From the IMG/VR virus record IMGVR_UViG_3300031841_004496, positions 1 through 25,711 of that record: 25,711 bases of DNA; one strand, 5' to 3'. A model generated the notes under the pieces. That model was not told the origin of the DNA and ran no database searches. It saw only the letters and a list, made by a program, of their open reading frames with translations. Within the stretch, counting starts at the first letter, position 1, and each line of letters starts with the position of its first letter. A program made the position numbers and the translations under genes. Of this stretch, positions 157-21,157 are shown in pieces. Source of the DNA: a virus.

Positions 157-678
157 ATGAATTTAGTAGAGCGAATACCAATAGGGAGTAAGTTCCCAGA
201 AAAAATTAATTGTATTATTGAAATACCTAAGGGTACTAGCGCAAAATATGAGTATAATGAAGAGTTGGATATATTTCAGCTCGCGAGATGTCTGTATAGT
301 TCGATGATATATACAGCATCGTATGGTTTTATACCTCAAACACATGCTCTTGATAATGACCCGCTAGATATTGTTGTGTATAATAATATACCTATACAAA
401 CAGGTACGTTAATTGAAGTTACACCTATCGCGACAATAGATATGACTGACAATGGAGATAAAGATTACAAAGTTGTGGCTGTTCCATGTAGCCATGTAAA
501 AGAATACCGTACCTTAAAAGATCTCGAACCACATTGGGTGAGTACAACTCTTAACTTCTTTTCTCATTACAAAGACTTAGAAGATAAGGTCGTAGAGATC
601 GGTGGTTGGTTGTCGAAATCTCGTACTAAGAAAATAATTACTGAAGCCCACGAAAGATATAATGCCAAAACCAATTAA
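157..678 (+). CDS. ppa: Inorganic pyrophosphatase, family I (soluble)
   Basis: It hydrolyses pyrophosphate to two phosphates in the cytoplasm, pulling forward PPi-releasing reactions such as DNA polymerisation and phosphoribosyl transfer. The family signature DNDPLD is at residues 66-71, with the three metal-binding Asp at 66, 68 and 71. Other active-site residues line up with E. coli PPase: E22, K30, E32, R44, Y56, D98, D103 and K105, plus an HYKDLE segment near residue 136. At 173 residues it is close to the normal bacterial length of about 175. It appears intact and catalytically competent. Its end overlaps the gp62-like gene by 17 bases, so the two are probably co-expressed. A pyrophosphatase gene is uncommon in T4-like phages. 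The family call is secure; its benefit to the phage is inferred. Confidence 0.93.
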   Translation: MNLVERIPIGSKFPEKINCIIEIPKGTSAKYEYNEELDIFQLARCLYSSMIYTASYGFIPQTHALDNDPLDIVVYNNIPIQTGTLIEVTPIATIDMTDNGDKDYKVVAVPCSHVKEYRTLKDLEPHWVSTTLNFFSHYKDLEDKVVEIGGWLSKSRTKKIITEAHERYNAKTN

Positions 679-12024: not shown

Positions 12025-12045
12025 TCTTTAAGGATTATAAACACG

Positions 12046-12076
12046 AAGAGCGCCCGTAAGGGCGCTCTTTTTTTTT
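12046..12076 (+). terminator. Strong intrinsic terminator after gp23
   Basis: AAGAGCGCCC (12046-12055), loop GTAA, GGGCGCTCTT (12060-12069) forms a perfect 10-bp GC-rich stem followed by an unbroken T tract to 12076. It separates the capsid gene from the convergent modification operon. Read on the minus strand it has only a weak T run, so it serves mainly gp23. Confidence 0.93.
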
Positions 12077-12094
12077 GTATATGATGAATAAGGA

Positions 12095-13006
12095 TTATTG
12101 TCTCAATGTCTTGATCCACGGAACCTTATGATCCCAAAAGAACTCATCAATCAAATATTCATGAGTAGTTCTGATAGGGTTAATGTCCCAACCACCTCGT
12201 CGTACATATAAACATGCTACCATAAGGGATCGCGGTTCAAAAGTATTATTCAATCTAGTGAAAATAGTCTCACATATCTCTTCGTGAAAATGACATTCAT
12301 CTCTAAAAGAGATAATATATTTTAACAATTCTTTATCAGATGGATGCTTAGTACCTTCAAGAGAGATAAACACATCACCCCAGTCAGGTTGAGAGGTAAC
12401 ACGACAGTTACTCTTAAGTAATGATGACATTACCTTATAAGGTTTATTAGTAGAGTTCAGATGCTTTGTCTCTAACAAGCTAGCAGTTTCGCTATATACA
12501 TCTACATAATAACTCTCTGCATCAATCTCATCAGTATTTTCTAATCTCTTATAGTTCTTATCAGTAAAGGGATTATCATTACTAAATGTATCGTTTGTAG
12601 GAAATACAGTTACTCTTACATCCGTCTGAAGATACTTACTTAAGTCTTTTGATGCTGTATCTTCTAGATTCTTAATTACCTTATCAAATGTATCTCCCAT
12701 CTTAGTCATATTGAATGTATTCCAATACAACTTCATAGATTTAGATTCAACGATATACTTACTATCAGAAGGATATACTACTTTAGCAACCCCACAAACA
12801 GGAACACCATTATTAGTTAATGCTGATACCTCGTAACCATTCCACACATCACAACCAATAAAAGGTAAGCTCTTCTCTTTAATACCTAAGTGCTTACGAT
12901 TACTTGATCGTGGTTCTCTCACTAACAGACTTGCATCATACTCAGATTTATACTGACTAGATTGTCCTAAGTGCTTACTAATATTTTTATTATCTAGTTT
13001 TGACAT
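12095..13006 (-). CDS. queF: NADPH-dependent 7-cyano-7-deazaguanine reductase (QueF, long form)
   Basis: It reduces the nitrile of preQ0 to the aminomethyl group of preQ1, using two NADPH. The ATG at 13006 is preferred to the TTG at 13012, giving 303 residues, the length of the two-domain bacterial form (E. coli 282). The N-terminal half has FIGCDVWNGYE at 49-59 and the NADPH motif ESKSMK at 87-92. The C-terminal half has the catalytic Cys in SNC201, Asp208 in QPDWG, FHEEICE at 240-246 and RRGGWDINPIR at 269-279. All key residues are kept, so it should be active. It is the last gene of the operon and overlaps the kinase gene by 17 bases. With DpdA and no tRNA-type TGT nearby, its product is most likely destined for phage DNA. 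Confidence 0.95.
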   Translation of the reverse strand: MSKLDNKNISKHLGQSSQYKSEYDASLLVREPRSSNRKHLGIKEKSLPFIGCDVWNGYEVSALTNNGVPVCGVAKVVYPSDSKYIVESKSMKLYWNTFNMTKMGDTFDKVIKNLEDTASKDLSKYLQTDVRVTVFPTNDTFSNDNPFTDKNYKRLENTDEIDAESYYVDVYSETASLLETKHLNSTNKPYKVMSSLLKSNCRVTSQPDWGDVFISLEGTKHPSDKELLKYIISFRDECHFHEEICETIFTRLNNTFEPRSLMVACLYVRRGGWDINPIRTTHEYLIDEFFWDHKVPWIKTLRQ

Positions 13007-13544
13007 CTTCAATAATCTCTATCATCTTATTATATCTACTTTCTACACTTCCTTCCAGTACATAAATATTAGGATACTTACCTAATATCAATTCTTCATA
13101 TAGTTTGATAATTTGACTTCTAAAACTTTCACTCATAGACCTTTCTCCATCATTGATAAGAGGAACATCATACGGATTAGTATAGAAGATACAATCATAC
13201 TTTTCTATATATCTACCTAATGCATAACTAAACATTTTATCTACGAACTCATTTACTTTACCTTGCGTTCTAAAATATCTAGTATAAACAAAACCATCTA
13301 CTATACAACGATCCAAGATATTGTTCATATCTTTACCACTATAAGTAAACAAATTTTGAATATGATCAGCAAAAATAGCTAACTGCGTATCATTATAGTT
13401 CGAACCATCGTCGTTAATCTCAAAACCGCTACGACGGATACGCCTAGTAACCTCATCGACTGAGCCCCATGCATTTGACTCTAAGAATTCGCGCAACAGA
13501 GTAGTTTTACCACTACTCTGCGCGCCTGTAAAAGAAACTAACAT
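12990..13544 (-). CDS. P-loop kinase-like protein (AAA_28 / NadR-kinase type)
   Basis: A 184-residue NTP-binding protein. The Walker A motif GAQSSGKTT is at residues 7-15. The following EVTRRIRRSG at 31-40 resembles the substrate region of NadR-like and nucleotide kinases. IVDGFVYTRYF at 81-91 follows a predicted strand, as a Walker B-type Asp83. NPYDVPLINDGERS near 123-136 resembles the 'P..DG.R' lid region of the AAA_28 family. Members phosphorylate nucleosides, nucleotides or cofactor precursors; the substrate here is unknown. It is tightly coupled: its ATG shares a base with the DUF1599 stop (TAATG), and its end overlaps queF by 17 bases. A role in the deazaguanine pathway is inferred from this position only. 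Confidence 0.75.
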   Translation of the reverse strand: MLVSFTGAQSSGKTTLLREFLESNAWGSVDEVTRRIRRSGFEINDDGSNYNDTQLAIFADHIQNLFTYSGKDMNNILDRCIVDGFVYTRYFRTQGKVNEFVDKMFSYALGRYIEKYDCIFYTNPYDVPLINDGERSMSESFRSQIIKLYEELILGKYPNIYVLEGSVESRYNKMIEIIEDVKTR

Positions 13545-13894
13545 TATTTACCCCAGACCCCATTATCGACTATCTGAGCAATTTTGCAATATAAACTTGA
13601 ATCTTTCCATGCATCTTGAATAGGTTCATTAGCAGCTTCTGCAGTACGTTTCTTAATGATGAGATTAATGAGTCTCTGTACTTTATCATTAACACGGAAT
13701 ACTAGTCCAGCTTTAGCAACTAAACGGCCATCCGGTTTAGATAAGTCCTGACCTACAGAAATATTAGTAGGGCCATAATCGTATTGCTTATTAATAAATA
13801 GCTTGTATTCTTCTTCGAGAAGATCTCTCAACATTGCACATGTTTCAGGATAATCATTCTCTACTTCCGCCTTGATTTCAGTGTAATCTTTCAT
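13544..13894 (-). CDS. DUF1599 (nucleotide modification associated domain 1) protein
   Basis: A 116-residue, mostly helical protein with the DUF1599 pattern: KQYDYGPTN at 36-44 (family 'K..DYG..N'), RVNDKVQRLINL at 67-78 (family 'R..DK..RL.NL'), then NEPIQDAWKDSSLYCKIA at 89-106 (family 'DE...D...DLA.Y'). The conserved Asp, Lys and Glu suggest a metal-binding site like that of all-alpha nucleotide pyrophosphatases, but no activity is known to me. The domain was named for its recurring association with phage base-modification genes. It lies third in the operon, overlapping the formyltransferase by 17 bases and the kinase by one. Confidence 0.75.
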   Translation of the reverse strand: MKDYTEIKAEVENDYPETCAMLRDLLEEEYKLFINKQYDYGPTNISVGQDLSKPDGRLVAKAGLVFRVNDKVQRLINLIIKKRTAEAANEPIQDAWKDSSLYCKIAQIVDNGVWGK

Positions 13895-14450
13895 TTAAAA
13901 AATTTATCCAAAGTTTTGTAGATTCAACATGAAGAGCTTTTTCTAGTTCTTCATATGTATTAAAGTTATTATCTATAATTGCATTTGCAACAATAGGTCC
14001 ATCATCGAGCTCGGGCGTTACCTTATGAATAACGCACCCAGCTCGATCATGTTTTGCTTCCCAAGCTTTTTTCTGAGGGTTAAAGCCTTTTAATTCTGGA
14101 TAGATATCAATAGCACCTGGATGACCATTATAGATGTTTGACGATCTAGTAAAGTCAGGAGGTAATATTCTCAGATAACCATGTAAAGTAACAAACACGT
14201 CTTCCTTCCAATCATCATTCAGTATAGAATAATTTAAAGCGTCTGCTGCTTTAAGATAATCCATCTCTTTTGGCCATTTAGGTAATCGTACAAACGGAAG
14301 ATCTCCAGTTGACTTCTTATATATTAGTTCAATATTTGTACCTTTGTCTTCTTGTCTATTAGTTACAATAAGATCAGGCCATCTTTTGATCTGTTTAGAG
14401 ATGTTTACAATTTCAGAACCAGTCTGACTATAAAACGCTAACCACTTCAT
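13878..14450 (-). CDS. dpdN: PurN-like formyltransferase, predicted dPreQ1 formyltransferase (DpdN-like)
   Basis: The fold is that of phosphoribosylglycinamide formyltransferase, which transfers a formyl group from 10-formyl-tetrahydrofolate to an amine. The ATG at 14450 shares a base with the dpdA stop (TAATG); a TTG at 14456 is less likely. In 190 residues (E. coli PurN 212) the catalytic triad is visible: N108-x-H110 in YNGHPG, and D149 in PELDDGP, matching PurN N106, H108 and D144. LHGYLRILPPDF at 89-100 matches PurN 'LAGFMRIL', and SQTGSE at 8-13 is the N-terminal loop. A purine-synthesis role is unlikely in this operon. Between QueF, which makes the primary amine of preQ1, and DpdA, N-formylation of preQ1 is the expected step. 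DpdN has been proposed for this in phages with 7-(formylamino)methyl-7-deazaguanine. Confidence 0.75.
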   Translation of the reverse strand: MKWLAFYSQTGSEIVNISKQIKRWPDLIVTNRQEDKGTNIELIYKKSTGDLPFVRLPKWPKEMDYLKAADALNYSILNDDWKEDVFVTLHGYLRILPPDFTRSSNIYNGHPGAIDIYPELKGFNPQKKAWEAKHDRAGCVIHKVTPELDDGPIVANAIIDNNFNTYEELEKALHVESTKLWINFLNERLH

Positions 14451-15280
14451 TACCAATATCTTCTTTTAATAATTCTTTTGAATTGACTTGTATTATACAT
14501 GATACGCTCTACTGCATCTTCATCAGGTTGTGCCTCGATTAAGTCAGCTAATAGCTGCGACGGTTTATGATCTAGACCGAAGTCTCCATTATAGGTATAT
14601 CCTAACAATCCAGCAACAACAGGATTAGACGTATCTAAGCTTCTAATATTATAGATATTATTATCTACATACCACTTAAATTCAGTTGCGAGAGATGCAC
14701 CTAACAAATGATGAGGTTTATTCCAGTCCCATTCTCCTTCATCAATTAATCTTTTAACTAGATTCTGACGACCAGTAGCTTGTCTTTTTAATTTAGCATT
14801 ATTATCACATACATGACTAATACCGGTTACATGATACATGCTGAAATCAAAACTGATAGCAACATAATCAGCGTTGTTTCTCATAAAGCGATAACACTCT
14901 ACTACTTCTGACCAAGTTTCGCCTTGAACTGCACCGATTCTCGCTCCTGGTAAATCTCCATAATTAGCGCGGAAGGCAGAAAACTGACCCATTGTTGCAG
15001 GCCCATTTTCAAGAACATCAGGTACGATGTAATAATTAGGTTTAATCTTCTCACACCAAACAGCATATTTATCTGCATCAAATGCTTCTTTTAGTTCGAA
15101 AATAGAATTATCTAAGAGAATTTCACCATTAGGTACTTTAGCTCTATATTTTTCTAGAAACCATTCTTTATATTCTTCTTGTTCTTCCATTAGATGAACT
15201 AAACAATATTGATAATCATTGTATTCTACCGATTCTGGTAGAAGAGCTATAGGAGATTCGTGCGATACCTTAATCGTCAT
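14450..15280 (-). CDS. dpdA: DpdA-type DNA guanine transglycosylase (TGT fold)
   Basis: It is predicted to swap guanine in phage DNA for a 7-deazaguanine base, protecting it from restriction. The 276 residues follow the tRNA-guanine transglycosylase order in reduced form: LLDNSIFEL at 55-63 (TGT 'TDSGGFQ', D57 matching the general acid/base Asp), VPDVLEN at 86-92 (TGT 'DE'), IGAVQGE at 115-121 (TGT 'FGIVQGG'), HHLLGAS at 190-196 (TGT 'YLMGVG') and SLDTSNP at 214-220 (TGT 'FDCVxPTR', with D216 as the expected nucleophile). It lacks the zinc-binding C-terminal segment of tRNA enzymes (about 375 residues), as expected for phage DpdA. It is the first gene of the operon, with a sigma70-like promoter ending 6 bases before its ATG. 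The DpdA subfamily could not be settled by eye. Confidence 0.88.
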   Translation of the reverse strand: MTIKVSHESPIALLPESVEYNDYQYCLVHLMEEQEEYKEWFLEKYRAKVPNGEILLDNSIFELKEAFDADKYAVWCEKIKPNYYIVPDVLENGPATMGQFSAFRANYGDLPGARIGAVQGETWSEVVECYRFMRNNADYVAISFDFSMYHVTGISHVCDNNAKLKRQATGRQNLVKRLIDEGEWDWNKPHHLLGASLATEFKWYVDNNIYNIRSLDTSNPVVAGLLGYTYNGDFGLDHKPSQLLADLIEAQPDEDAVERIMYNTSQFKRIIKRRYW

Positions 15281-18610: not shown

Positions 18611-19033
18611 TTAAGCTACCTTAACATCAATTACTTTAGCTTCTTTACGAGCTTTCCGAGGAATAGTGATACTAAGTACCCCTTCTGAGATAGTAGCATC
18701 AAGCTCCGCACAATTCATCTCATTACTAGGATGAAATGAGCGTGTATATGTTTCTTCTTTCGAACCAGTCTTTGTAGTGATAGTTCGTTTAGCTTCCACA
18801 TAAACGTTATTAGATTCCTCAGAGTAAGTAACCTTGAGGTTTTCTTTCTTCACACCTGGAAGATCAATTTCAATGCGAGCACCATCTTCACTTTCGTTGA
18901 AACGAATATTATCGTTAGAGAATGAAGCTGGAGTAGCAAAGTTGTCTCCAAATGCAGTGTTGAATAAGTCAACGACTGGGCTGACTGACCCCGCCCGAGG
19001 GTTTGTTGTTAAGTAATTAAATAAGTTAGACAT
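18611..19033 (-). CDS. hsp20: Small heat shock protein, Hsp20 / alpha-crystallin family
   Basis: An ATP-independent holdase chaperone of 140 residues. The alpha-crystallin domain covers about residues 40-130: IRFNESEDGARIEIDLPGVKK (start near 43), LKVTYSEESNNVYVEAKR, then CAELDATISEGVLSITIPRK, which contains the signature 'A....GVL.I..P'. The N-terminal 40 residues include short hydrophobic patches typical of substrate-binding arms. Hsp20 genes are common in marine T4-like phages. It is on the minus strand, converging with gp5, and has a perfect TATAAATA late core 8 bases before its ATG, so it is probably made late, with the virion proteins. Confidence 0.95.
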   Translation of the reverse strand: MSNLFNYLTTNPRAGSVSPVVDLFNTAFGDNFATPASFSNDNIRFNESEDGARIEIDLPGVKKENLKVTYSEESNNVYVEAKRTITTKTGSKEETYTRSFHPSNEMNCAELDATISEGVLSITIPRKARKEAKVIDVKVA

Positions 19034-19364: not shown

Positions 19365-20672
19365 ATGGCAGAGGTAAAAAAGGCTAGATTATTTTTACGT
19401 AGAGGTTCAGATACTGACCGGCGCGATACGGTTTTATGTCAAGGTGAACTCGGTTATTCTACTGATGCTTTTAGAATTTTTATTGGTGATGGCTCTACTG
19501 AGGGTGGTAAGTCAGTAGGTAGCTTTATGTATGTGAGTGGGGGTAATCTCGGAGCAAACTTTCATACTAACCTTACTACAGCATCTGCAAACGGTCGAGC
19601 ACATAAAGGAGATATAGCTATATTTCCTGCGCAATCTTATACTAACGCAGCTGGTGGTACAGTAACTCCGCACGCTAGTGCTTCTACAGTAATGATTTTA
19701 ACTGCTGCAACTACTGCGGATGGTAATGAGCAAGCTACAGCAAGCAGTTGGGTGGCTGTAAACTCTGGTATTCCATTTGGTAATATTGATGTTTTAGATA
19801 ATGATATTTCTGGTGATAAAGTACATGGCGGTACTATATCTGGTCCTATTACTCTGTCAGGTGGTAATATAAATATAGGTGGAGATAGTACGAGTGAGAA
19901 TTTAATTTTATCAGGAGTCGCTCTGAGCGCTGCAACTGTACCAACAGGAGATCTTGTTTACCCATTAGGTCTTACAAGTACTTCTCAGCTCACTTGTGTT
20001 GATTCTATTTTTGATTTTGGTATCCCGACAAATACTACTGGTTTTGGTAACGCGGGTGGTTATTTGCACGCATCGACAACAAATGCCGCATCAGCAGTTT
20101 CTGCTTATGCTGTAAGTAATGGTGCTTATACGTTTGGTGGTACAACAGGTTCTGCTTTAGTTTCCGGTTCAATTACAGATGATGGAACAGGTTCTGGTAT
20201 AGTAGTGTTTACAAAAGCTGGTTACTTGGGTAATGGAGGAGCATTCGCTAACGGTTCTGGTGATGTTTTCTTACCAGGAAATTTTGCAGTAAACTCTGGA
20301 GTATCTGAAAAATGCGCAATTAAAGAATTTGTATGGGGTATTACAGAAATTCGTAAGGCTGTACAAACTGCTAGCCTTACATGGGCTCAAATTAAAGAGT
20401 TTTATTTTTCTGTATTTCATTCTCACGCTGACGACTCAGCAACGTTTGTGGGTCATTATAACAATTTGACCGGTAGTAACGAAATCGTACATTGGAACGG
20501 TAGTTCTATTTCTTCTGGTAAAATGAGAGGTGTTCCAGATGCGGCAACAATTACAATACCTAATACGTATAATGGTAGTGTTGCTGCTACTGAGCGATTA
20601 GTAGTACATTTAGGTCTCGCAGCTAGCGGAGAAGTAGGTATTGCCCTGACTGGTATTAGAGTTAATCTCTAA
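19365..20672 (+). CDS. Predicted tail fibre/virion protein with Mtd-like N-terminal domain
   Basis: The 435-residue protein begins with a short module (ARLFLRRGSDTDRRDTVLC, then GELGYSTDAFRIFIGDGST, residues 8-45). It resembles the N-terminal domain of the phage major tropism determinant and many tail fibres ('R.G....W....L..GE.GY.TD....IGDG'). The rest is low in charge and rich in Gly, Ser, Thr and Ala: a probable beta-helix around 145-185 (SGDKVHGGTISGPITLSGGN), then Ser/Gly-rich sandwich segments. A C-terminal domain from about residue 320 contains EFVWGITEIRKAVQTASLTW. The composition and N-terminal module indicate a receptor-facing or accessory fibre. It converges on the phosphoribosyltransferase gene with a 4-base overlap of the ends. 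Confidence 0.72.
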   Translation: MAEVKKARLFLRRGSDTDRRDTVLCQGELGYSTDAFRIFIGDGSTEGGKSVGSFMYVSGGNLGANFHTNLTTASANGRAHKGDIAIFPAQSYTNAAGGTVTPHASASTVMILTAATTADGNEQATASSWVAVNSGIPFGNIDVLDNDISGDKVHGGTISGPITLSGGNINIGGDSTSENLILSGVALSAATVPTGDLVYPLGLTSTSQLTCVDSIFDFGIPTNTTGFGNAGGYLHASTTNAASAVSAYAVSNGAYTFGGTTGSALVSGSITDDGTGSGIVVFTKAGYLGNGGAFANGSGDVFLPGNFAVNSGVSEKCAIKEFVWGITEIRKAVQTASLTWAQIKEFYFSVFHSHADDSATFVGHYNNLTGSNEIVHWNGSSISSGKMRGVPDAATITIPNTYNGSVAATERLVVHLGLAASGEVGIALTGIRVNL

Positions 20673-21157
20673 GACTCCCACGGAAATACTATCCATTGAT
20701 CATTATCAAAATCTCTTACAGTATAATGAGGAGTAAATGTGGATTTAGGTTTATAATATAGCGTAGAATAAACCCACTTATTTTGCTCTGGTCGTTCCCA
20801 TGTGACTATAGAGTCTATTTGTTTTACTTTGCGAAGAGTCATTCCTGTATCAGCTAAATCATCAACTACAAGTATTTTTTCTTCATCTCTTAAAGTTCCA
20901 AAGTCAGGAAATGTAATTAGCCTTACTACATCGGTTTCAGAGTGTACTCCATCTCTAGGTTTATCATCTACGTAAGATTTCAAATTTGCTGAAAGTAATT
21001 TATCTACTTTAAGATGTTTAGCTAATAACGTTGCAGGTATCATGCCCCCATTAGCGATACCTATTATACAGGTAATATTTTCTTTTGATAGACTATCCGC
21101 TAATGTCTTGCAGTCTTGTTTAATATCTTCCCAAGTTAAATTAATCTTTTCACTCAT
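20669..21157 (-). CDS. Purine phosphoribosyltransferase, Gpt (xanthine/guanine)-like
   Basis: A type I phosphoribosyltransferase of 162 residues (E. coli Gpt 152). It would join a free purine base to PRPP, giving the nucleotide and pyrophosphate. The PRPP loop is ILVVDDLADTGMT at 95-107, IIGIANGGMIPATLLAKHL at 31-49 matches Gpt 'IIAVSRGGLVPGALLA', LTWEDIKQDCKTLADSL at the N-terminus matches Gpt 'VTWDMLQIHARKLA', and the end QWIVFPWE resembles the Gpt hood 'TWIEQPWD'. Residue S62-Y63 (NLKSYVDD) is in the flexible-loop position. The base used cannot be read from sequence, but guanine or xanthine is most likely. It follows the 55-residue gene with an ATGA overlap. A salvage role for guanine released by DpdA is a reasonable inference. 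Confidence 0.82.
   Translation of the reverse strand: MSEKINLTWEDIKQDCKTLADSLSKENITCIIGIANGGMIPATLLAKHLKVDKLLSANLKSYVDDKPRDGVHSETDVVRLITFPDFGTLRDEEKILVVDDLADTGMTLRKVKQIDSIVTWERPEQNKWVYSTLYYKPKSTFTPHYTVRDFDNDQWIVFPWES

What the first reader, a model, noticed from the sequence alone, without database searches (positions are those of the whole stretch)
12095..15280. Five-gene operon predicted to make formylated preQ1 (fdPreQ1) in phage DNA
The sequence shows DpdA, a PurN-like formyltransferase, a DUF1599 protein, a P-loop kinase and QueF as one overlapping minus-strand unit. QueF makes preQ1, DpdA inserts deazaguanine into DNA, and a formyltransferase named DpdN has been proposed to make 7-(formylamino)methyl-7-deazaguanine in phages. 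Together they point to fdPreQ1 rather than plain dPreQ1. No preQ0 synthesis genes are in the window, so preQ0 comes from the host or another phage locus.
Basis: partly seen in the sequence, partly recalled or inferred. Interest (0 to 1): 0.9.

Follow-up and report, generated by a model that had tools for sequence, protein, structure and literature searches.

The report
Phage operon for formylated-guanine-analogue DNA
A T4-like environmental virus carries a five-gene operon that very probably replaces guanine in its DNA with a formylated 7-deazaguanine; the chemistry has been described in phages before, but nearly every such operon also carries a nucleotide kinase, and many carry other nucleotide-pool enzymes, whose role is unexplained.

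Summary
In detail: five overlapping minus-strand genes lie at 12095-15280. The order is a DpdA-type transglycosylase, a PurN-fold formyltransferase (DpdN), a DUF1599 protein, an AAA_28 P-loop kinase and a bimodular QueF. DpdA has no Pfam, NCBIfam or PDB sequence match. Its AlphaFold2 model (pLDDT 94) matches tRNA-guanine transglycosylases and DpdA by fold, and it is closest to Flavobacterium phage immuto and Campylobacter phage CP220 proteins, which I read as DpdA3-type. Immuto carries DpdA-DpdN-kinase-QueF in the same order. Close relatives on long contigs encode FolE, QueD, QueE and QueC elsewhere, so the phage probably makes its own preQ0.

DUF1599 is fused to DpdN in ten fetched loci. In other lineages dATP/dGTP diphosphohydrolase, MazG/PRA-PH or IMPDH/GMP-reductase genes sit in the operon. 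A phosphoribosyltransferase elsewhere in the window has relatives in only 29 of 50,697 phage records, and all four named lineages among them carry a DpdA. This points to guanine recycling and perhaps to exchange at the nucleotide pool. Known chemistry; new variant.

The parts
14450..15280 (-). DpdA, 276 aa, TGT-fold guanine transglycosylase of the CP220/immuto (DpdA3-like) type
   Evidence: 43% to immuto DpdA, 37-38% to Campylobacter Firehammervirus proteins; AlphaFold2 pLDDT 93.9; Foldseek top 46 hits are TGTs and DpdA 7ui4, best E 3e-8; D57, D88, D216 invariant in 34 relatives and in three distant ones
13878..14450 (-). DpdN-type formyltransferase, 190 aa from the ATG at 14450 (ORF extends to a TTG at 14456)
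   Evidence: PF00551 E 2.8e-11; 40% to immuto homologue; profile hits PurN structures, best E 5e-16; N110, H112, D151 invariant in 36
13544..13894 (-). DUF1599 (nucleotide modification associated domain 1) protein, 116 aa, all-alpha
   Evidence: 4 of 12 relatives hit PF07659; fused to the C-terminus of DpdN in ten fetched loci; AF2 pLDDT 88.8; no significant PDB fold match
12990..13544 (-). AAA_28 P-loop kinase, 184 aa, (deoxy)nucleoside/nucleotide kinase-like
   Evidence: PF13521 in 33 of 33 relatives, dNK in 5; profile hits thymidylate kinase, NadR, deoxynucleoside kinases; tblastn matches in only 21 of 50,697 phage records, all Campylobacter phages or immuto
12095..13012 (-). QueF, bimodular preQ0 reductase making preQ1 (first ATG at 13006)
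   Evidence: TIGR03138 E 4.6e-77; 38% to E. coli QueF with C203, D210, F242-H243-E244 and E89-S-K-S aligned, invariant in 30
12045..12070 (.). Terminator-like hairpin between the convergent major capsid gene and queF
   Evidence: 11-pair stem, 4-nt loop and T-run on + strand; 10-pair reverse version on - strand
20669..21157 (-). Phosphoribosyltransferase (PF00156), proposed to recycle the guanine released by DpdA
   Evidence: PF00156 E 1.2e-12; homologues in 29 of 50,697 phage records; every named lineage among these also carries a DpdA-like protein where checked

Best explanation
The operon hypermodifies the genome of a T4-like phage. preQ0 is made by FolE, QueD, QueE and QueC encoded elsewhere in the phage genome (shown for close relatives, inferred for this fragment). 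QueF reduces preQ0 to preQ1. The DpdA3-like transglycosylase exchanges guanine for the 7-deazaguanine. DpdN transfers a formyl group, presumably from 10-formyl-tetrahydrofolate, to the aminomethyl nitrogen, giving 2'-deoxy-7-(formylamino)methyl-7-deazaguanosine (fdPreQ1) in the DNA, probably at a large share of all G positions, and so shields it from host nucleases. The kinase and DUF1599 serve the guanine-nucleotide side of the exchange, and the phosphoribosyltransferase salvages the released guanine. Enzyme families, conserved catalytic residues and gene linkage are shown; substrates, order of steps, extent of replacement and the partner roles are inferred.
For: Same gene order DpdA-DpdN-kinase-QueF, with FolE, QueD and QueE just upstream, in Flavobacterium phage immuto. 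TGT/DpdA fold and three invariant Asp. PurN triad in DpdN. E. coli-type QueF. Of 43 DpdN-bearing lineages with enough downstream sequence 42 have QueF, whereas 9 QueF lineages lack DpdN. L059 lacks both DpdN and QueF in its operon (no QueF in that contig). QueC, FolE, QueD and QueE in near-relative contigs of 115-201 kb. The PRT's restriction to DpdA phages. Precedent: Streptococcus phage Dp-1, with a QueF-like protein, contains dPreQ1 (PMC6884629).
Against: No nucleoside chemistry for this phage, and the phage is uncultured. The acceptor of DpdN is not shown by sequence. L083 has DpdN but no QueF in its 49.7-kb contig, although that is a fragment. hhalign to E. coli TGT alone is not significant, so the TGT assignment rests on fold, motifs and an annotated homologue. 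The kinase and pool enzymes are not explained by simple post-replicative exchange.
Confidence: 0.74

Rival explanations
1. Nucleotide-pool substitution. dGTP is cut to dGMP by DUF1599 or its replacements, the DpdA exchanges guanine for preQ1 on dGMP, DpdN formylates the base or nucleotide, the kinase lifts the modified dNMP towards the dNTP, and the polymerase then builds DNA without G, as in the Z-genome phages. It shares the product with the best explanation but differs in where the exchange happens, so the two confidences overlap.
For: A kinase follows DpdA in 53 of 55 lineages, and also in CP220 and CC_R7; in phiST a different P-loop ATPase precedes it. Within or at DpdA operons lie dATP/dGTP diphosphohydrolase PF18909 (L083, L048, L077), PRA-PH/MazG (immuto, L127), IMPDH/GMP reductase (L072, L124, L131, L145), LOG-family protein (L077) and HIT (L046, L047, L049, L052), and MazG in phiST. 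DUF1599 is fused to DpdN. A related kinase in CC_R7 sits beside dUTPase. DpdA is acidic (pI 4.6-6.6) and shows no conserved Cys cluster like the Zn site of TGTs. Nucleotide-level Z-genome precedent: PMC12783734.
Against: Published work treats DpdA as acting on DNA (PMC12783734). From memory, no dADG phosphates were seen in Firehammervirus-infected cells. E. coli TGT, which binds tRNA, is also acidic (pI 6.0). DUF1599 has no demonstrated hydrolase activity, and its model matches MazG only insignificantly. Several lineages show none of these pool enzymes next to DpdA.
Confidence: 0.33
2. The DNA carries plain dPreQ1 (or dPreQ0, dADG or dG+) and the formyltransferase serves another purpose, such as purine synthesis (PurN/GART) supplying the guanine drain.
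For: The best profile matches of DpdN are PurN enzymes, and some cyanophages carry PurN-like genes. QueF/QueF-L calls in phages have been ambiguous (PMC6884629).
Against: DpdN scores far below the PurN cutoff (47 against 150 bits). It sits in the DpdA-QueF operon in 43 lineages and almost never without QueF, with no purine-synthesis genes between them in the window. Both QueF modules and the ESKS motif are present, as in the E. coli nitrile reductase.
Confidence: 0.15
3. The operon boosts queuosine in host tRNA rather than modifying DNA.
For: QueF and preQ0 genes alone could feed tRNA queuosine.
Against: A phage-specific transglycosylase with a dedicated kinase is present. DpdA homologues were found in only 4 contigs of the 84,980-species genome collection. 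The homologue in Campylobacter phages belongs to phages whose DNA is reported to be highly modified by dADG (PMC6884629). The formyl group has no role in queuosine synthesis (established knowledge).
Confidence: 0.04

Closest known systems
Flavobacterium phage vB_FspM_immuto (Immutovirus) deazaguanine cluster
   Same: DpdA, DpdN, kinase and QueF homologues in the same order (40-47% identity; kinase 33%), with phage FolE, QueD, QueE
   Different: immuto has a PRA-PH/MazG protein upstream and no DUF1599 in the operon; in the window the preQ0 genes are not adjacent and DUF1599 sits between DpdN and kinase
DpdN / fdPreQ1 pathway of Cui et al. 2023 (doi 10.1093/nar/gkad657; content from memory)
   Same: Formyltransferase paired with a transglycosylase and QueF, predicted product fdPreQ1
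   Different: Kinase, DUF1599 and pool enzymes as operon partners are, as far as I know, not described there; not verified because the paper is not held
Campylobacter Firehammervirus (CP220) dADG system
   Same: DpdA homologue (37%) directly followed by a kinase homologue (31%); PRT present
   Different: No QueF and no DpdN hit; product reported as dADG
Cellulophaga phage phiST
   Same: QueD-QueE-FolE-MazG-(hyp)-P-loop ATPase-DpdA-like gp42, and a PRT
   Different: No QueC found, so a different 7-deazaguanine; gp42 is annotated hypothetical
Z-genome (diaminopurine) phages, nucleotide-level substitution
   Same: Works-like analogy: enzymes that remove the normal dNTP and make and phosphorylate a replacement nucleotide
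   Different: Different chemistry: base exchange by a TGT fold instead of PurZ; analogy only, not membership

Membership tests
DpdA (phage 7-deazaguanine transglycosylase), DpdA3-like | TGT fold | tested here: met
   AF2 pLDDT 93.9; 46 best Foldseek hits are TGTs/DpdA, E 3e-8 to 3e-5
DpdA (phage 7-deazaguanine transglycosylase), DpdA3-like | Catalytic/recognition Asp residues of TGT | tested here: met
   D57, D88, D216 invariant in 34 sequences and in phiST, CC_R7, StAshley; equivalence to Z. mobilis D102, D156, D280 is my motif reading, not a structural superposition
DpdA (phage 7-deazaguanine transglycosylase), DpdA3-like | Homology to the Firehammervirus enzyme | tested here: met
   tblastn E 3e-41 over 96%; the subfamily name DpdA3 is from memory
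DpdA (phage 7-deazaguanine transglycosylase), DpdA3-like | Exchange of guanine in DNA, complete replacement | not testable with these tools
   needs virion DNA or purified enzyme
DpdN formyltransferase | Formyl_trans_N fold with Asn-His-Asp triad | tested here: met
DpdN formyltransferase | Linkage to DpdA and QueF | tested here: met
   42 of 43 DpdN lineages have QueF
DpdN formyltransferase | Acts on preQ1 or dPreQ1 | not testable with these tools
   no assay
QueF (preQ0 reductase) | Bimodular, catalytic Cys/Asp, FHE motif, ESKS motif | tested here: met
   but score 259 bits is below the TIGR03138 equivalog cutoff of 293
PurN (GAR transformylase) | Equivalog score cutoff | tested here: not met
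   47 bits against 150
DUF1599 / Nmad1 | Pfam PF07659 match | tested here: inconclusive
   window protein none; 4 of 12 relatives, best E 1.8e-4
MazG/all-alpha NTP pyrophosphohydrolase (for DUF1599) | Fold match | tested here: inconclusive
   iMazG appears among hits but at E about 4, TM 0.4
Nucleoside/nucleotide kinase (AAA_28) | P-loop kinase family | tested here: met
   33 of 33 AAA_28; TMPK/dNK structures by profile; substrate unknown

The most novel reading that the evidence does not exclude
DpdA3-type phages substitute guanine at the nucleotide pool rather than in finished DNA: a transglycosylase works on dGMP, supported by dGTP-removing enzymes (DUF1599, dGTP diphosphohydrolase or MazG), a dedicated dNMP kinase and a guanine-recycling phosphoribosyltransferase. 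That would explain total base replacement and would be a new route to a G-free genome, with a TGT fold as a nucleotide enzyme.
Probability: 0.33. Interest if true: 0.82.

Novelty: new variant of a known kind. Interest (0 to 1): 0.6.

Why it matters
It places a formylated 7-deazaguanine DNA system in a large, uncultured group of T4-like phages and shows which partners travel with the enzyme family reported to replace all guanines. The recurrent nucleotide-pool enzymes make a specific open question testable: whether 7-deazaguanines enter these genomes by exchange in DNA or as nucleotides. The phosphoribosyltransferase suggests a simple answer to where the displaced guanine goes.

Tried and rejected
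Sequence profile of DpdA against the PDB: no hits; hhalign to E. coli TGT: not significant. PDB profile search and fold search for the DUF1599 protein: nothing significant; MazG-like at E about 4 is only a hint. First neighbourhood pass mislabelled many DpdN as DUF1599, because DpdN-DUF1599 fusions contaminated the profile; rebuilt from single-domain members. Isoelectric points do not separate nucleic-acid-acting from nucleotide-acting TGTs. Promoter-like sites are at the level of shuffles. CP220 gp55 (HD plus polynucleotide-kinase-like AAA_33) was considered as a dGTPase, not claimed. Small ORFs after QueF in L117-L140 look MazG-like by eye but have no Pfam support. No Rfam family or tRNA in the window. 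The key paper (Cui 2023) is not held.
Full report
What is there. The window is a 25,711-base virus record with T4-like structural genes: portal, head maturation protease, major head protein, tail sheath stabiliser. Its capsid protein is at most about 34% identical to the best cultured phages, mainly cyanophages. At 12095-15280, minus strand, five ORFs overlap by 1 to 23 nt. A strong terminator-like hairpin at 12045-12070 separates the unit from the convergent capsid gene.

Identity of each gene. (1) DpdA, 276 aa. It has no Pfam or NCBIfam match and no PDB sequence match even as a profile. It is 43% identical to the immuto protein annotated as DNA guanine transglycosylase and 37-38% to Campylobacter Firehammervirus proteins; among 50,697 phage records only those 18 match by tblastn. 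The AlphaFold2 model is confident and its 46 best PDB matches are tRNA-guanine transglycosylases plus DpdA 7ui4. D57 (LLDNS), D88 (VPD) and D216 (SLDTSNP) are invariant in 34 relatives and in three more distant ones; I read them as the TGT catalytic and recognition aspartates. (2) DpdN has the formyltransferase fold with the Asn-His-Asp triad and is far below the PurN cutoff. (3) The 116-aa protein belongs to DUF1599 by its relatives only. (4) The kinase is AAA_28, nearest among solved structures to thymidylate kinase, NadR and deoxynucleoside kinases. (5) QueF is a bimodular E. coli-type enzyme with its catalytic residues.

Comparative genomics. Scans of IMG/VR gave 403 DpdA relatives and 260 DpdN relatives; the 80 best of each were fetched. 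After grouping at 95% DpdA identity, 55 lineages had at least 3.5 kb downstream: the kinase is present in 53, QueF in 51, DpdN in 43 (42 with QueF) and DUF1599 in 24. With the DpdA bait alone the counts are 33, 31, 23 and 16 of 35. These samples lean towards the window, so proportions are not those of the whole family, and lineages are not independent. The exceptions are informative: lineages with DpdA-kinase-QueF and no DpdN would be expected to make plain dPreQ1 or another derivative; L059 lacks both DpdN and QueF; L083 keeps DpdN without QueF in a 49.7-kb fragment.

Source of preQ0. None of FolE, QueD, QueE or QueC is detectable in the window. The nearest relatives on long contigs (116, 115 and 201 kb) have FolE, a QueD-QueE pair and QueC elsewhere, and in the two whose loci were read a second AAA_28 kinase directly follows QueE. 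So the phage is likely self-sufficient for preQ0.

Predicted product. QueF gives preQ1, DpdA inserts it, DpdN formylates it: fdPreQ1. The precedent is Cui et al. 2023, known to me from memory and cited in held papers but not readable here. The immuto operon has the same order.

The kinase is not incidental. Its homologues at this sensitivity occur in 21 of 50,697 phage records, all Campylobacter phages or immuto, and it sits next to DpdA whether the phage has QueF or not. The DUF1599 domain is fused to DpdN in ten fetched loci. In other lineages the operon contains PF18909 dATP/dGTP diphosphohydrolase, PRA-PH/MazG, IMPDH/GMP reductase, LOG-family or HIT proteins, and phiST has FolE-MazG-(hyp)-P-loop ATPase-DpdA. 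These are mostly nucleotide-pool activities, which simple exchange in finished DNA would not need. The window's phosphoribosyltransferase, 5.4 kb from the operon, has homologues in 29 phage records. The named lineages (Campylobacter Firehammer-type including CC_R7, immuto, the Cellulophaga phiST group, Brevundimonas StAshley/MaInes) carry a DpdA-like protein where one representative of each was checked, and in StAshley the phosphoribosyltransferase is next to FolE and a dNMP kinase gene. Four short or unannotated records among the 29 were not checked.

Mechanism. I commit to fdPreQ1 DNA made by QueF, DpdA and DpdN (0.74), with guanine salvage by the phosphoribosyltransferase as a likely addition. 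Whether the exchange is on DNA or on dGMP is open; published inference is for DNA, operon content argues for a nucleotide step (0.33).

Novelty. The chemistry and the DpdA-DpdN-QueF set are known in kind. The DUF1599-containing and DUF1599-fused form, the fixed kinase, the interchangeable pool enzymes and the linked phosphoribosyltransferase are, to my knowledge, not described, so this is a new variant of a known kind.

Noticed in passing
window 157-678 (+): Family I inorganic pyrophosphatase (PF00719, E 2e-47), unusual in a phage; could draw off PPi from DNA synthesis or from pyrophosphohydrolases.
   Followed up: partly
window 18611-19033 (-): Hsp20 small heat-shock protein gene, as in T4-like cyanophages.
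   Followed up: no
window 19365-20672 (+): Protein with an Mtd_N (major tropism determinant N-terminal) domain, a possible receptor-binding protein; diversity-generating elements not searched.
   Followed up: no
L167 7055-7813 (+), L168 5698-6465 (-): A second AAA_28 kinase paralogue lies directly downstream of QueE in near relatives, so a kinase accompanies both deazaguanine loci.
   Followed up: partly
L166 6548-7327: Cellulophaga phage phiST gp42, annotated hypothetical, is a DpdA-like transglycosylase (E 2.4e-18) in a phage without detectable QueC.
   Followed up: partly
L152 3674-4474: Brevundimonas phage StAshley gene 90, annotated hypothetical, is DpdA-like and lies beside QueC-QueD-QueE; dNMP kinase, FolE and PRT are adjacent further along.
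   Followed up: partly
L059 2554-3003: In one lineage without DpdN and QueF, a cupin protein sits between DpdA and DUF1599; it may be an alternative tailoring enzyme.
   Followed up: no
L133 11999-13579, L140 9437-11579: Operons that continue QueF - small 70-82 aa ORF - QueC - amidotransferase-like - dCTP deaminase-like protein.
   Followed up: no
L148 7779-8333: Microcystis phage Mel-JY01 has a 42% DUF1599 relative, with an IMPDH/GMP reductase gene about 3.5 kb downstream, but no DpdA.
   Followed up: no
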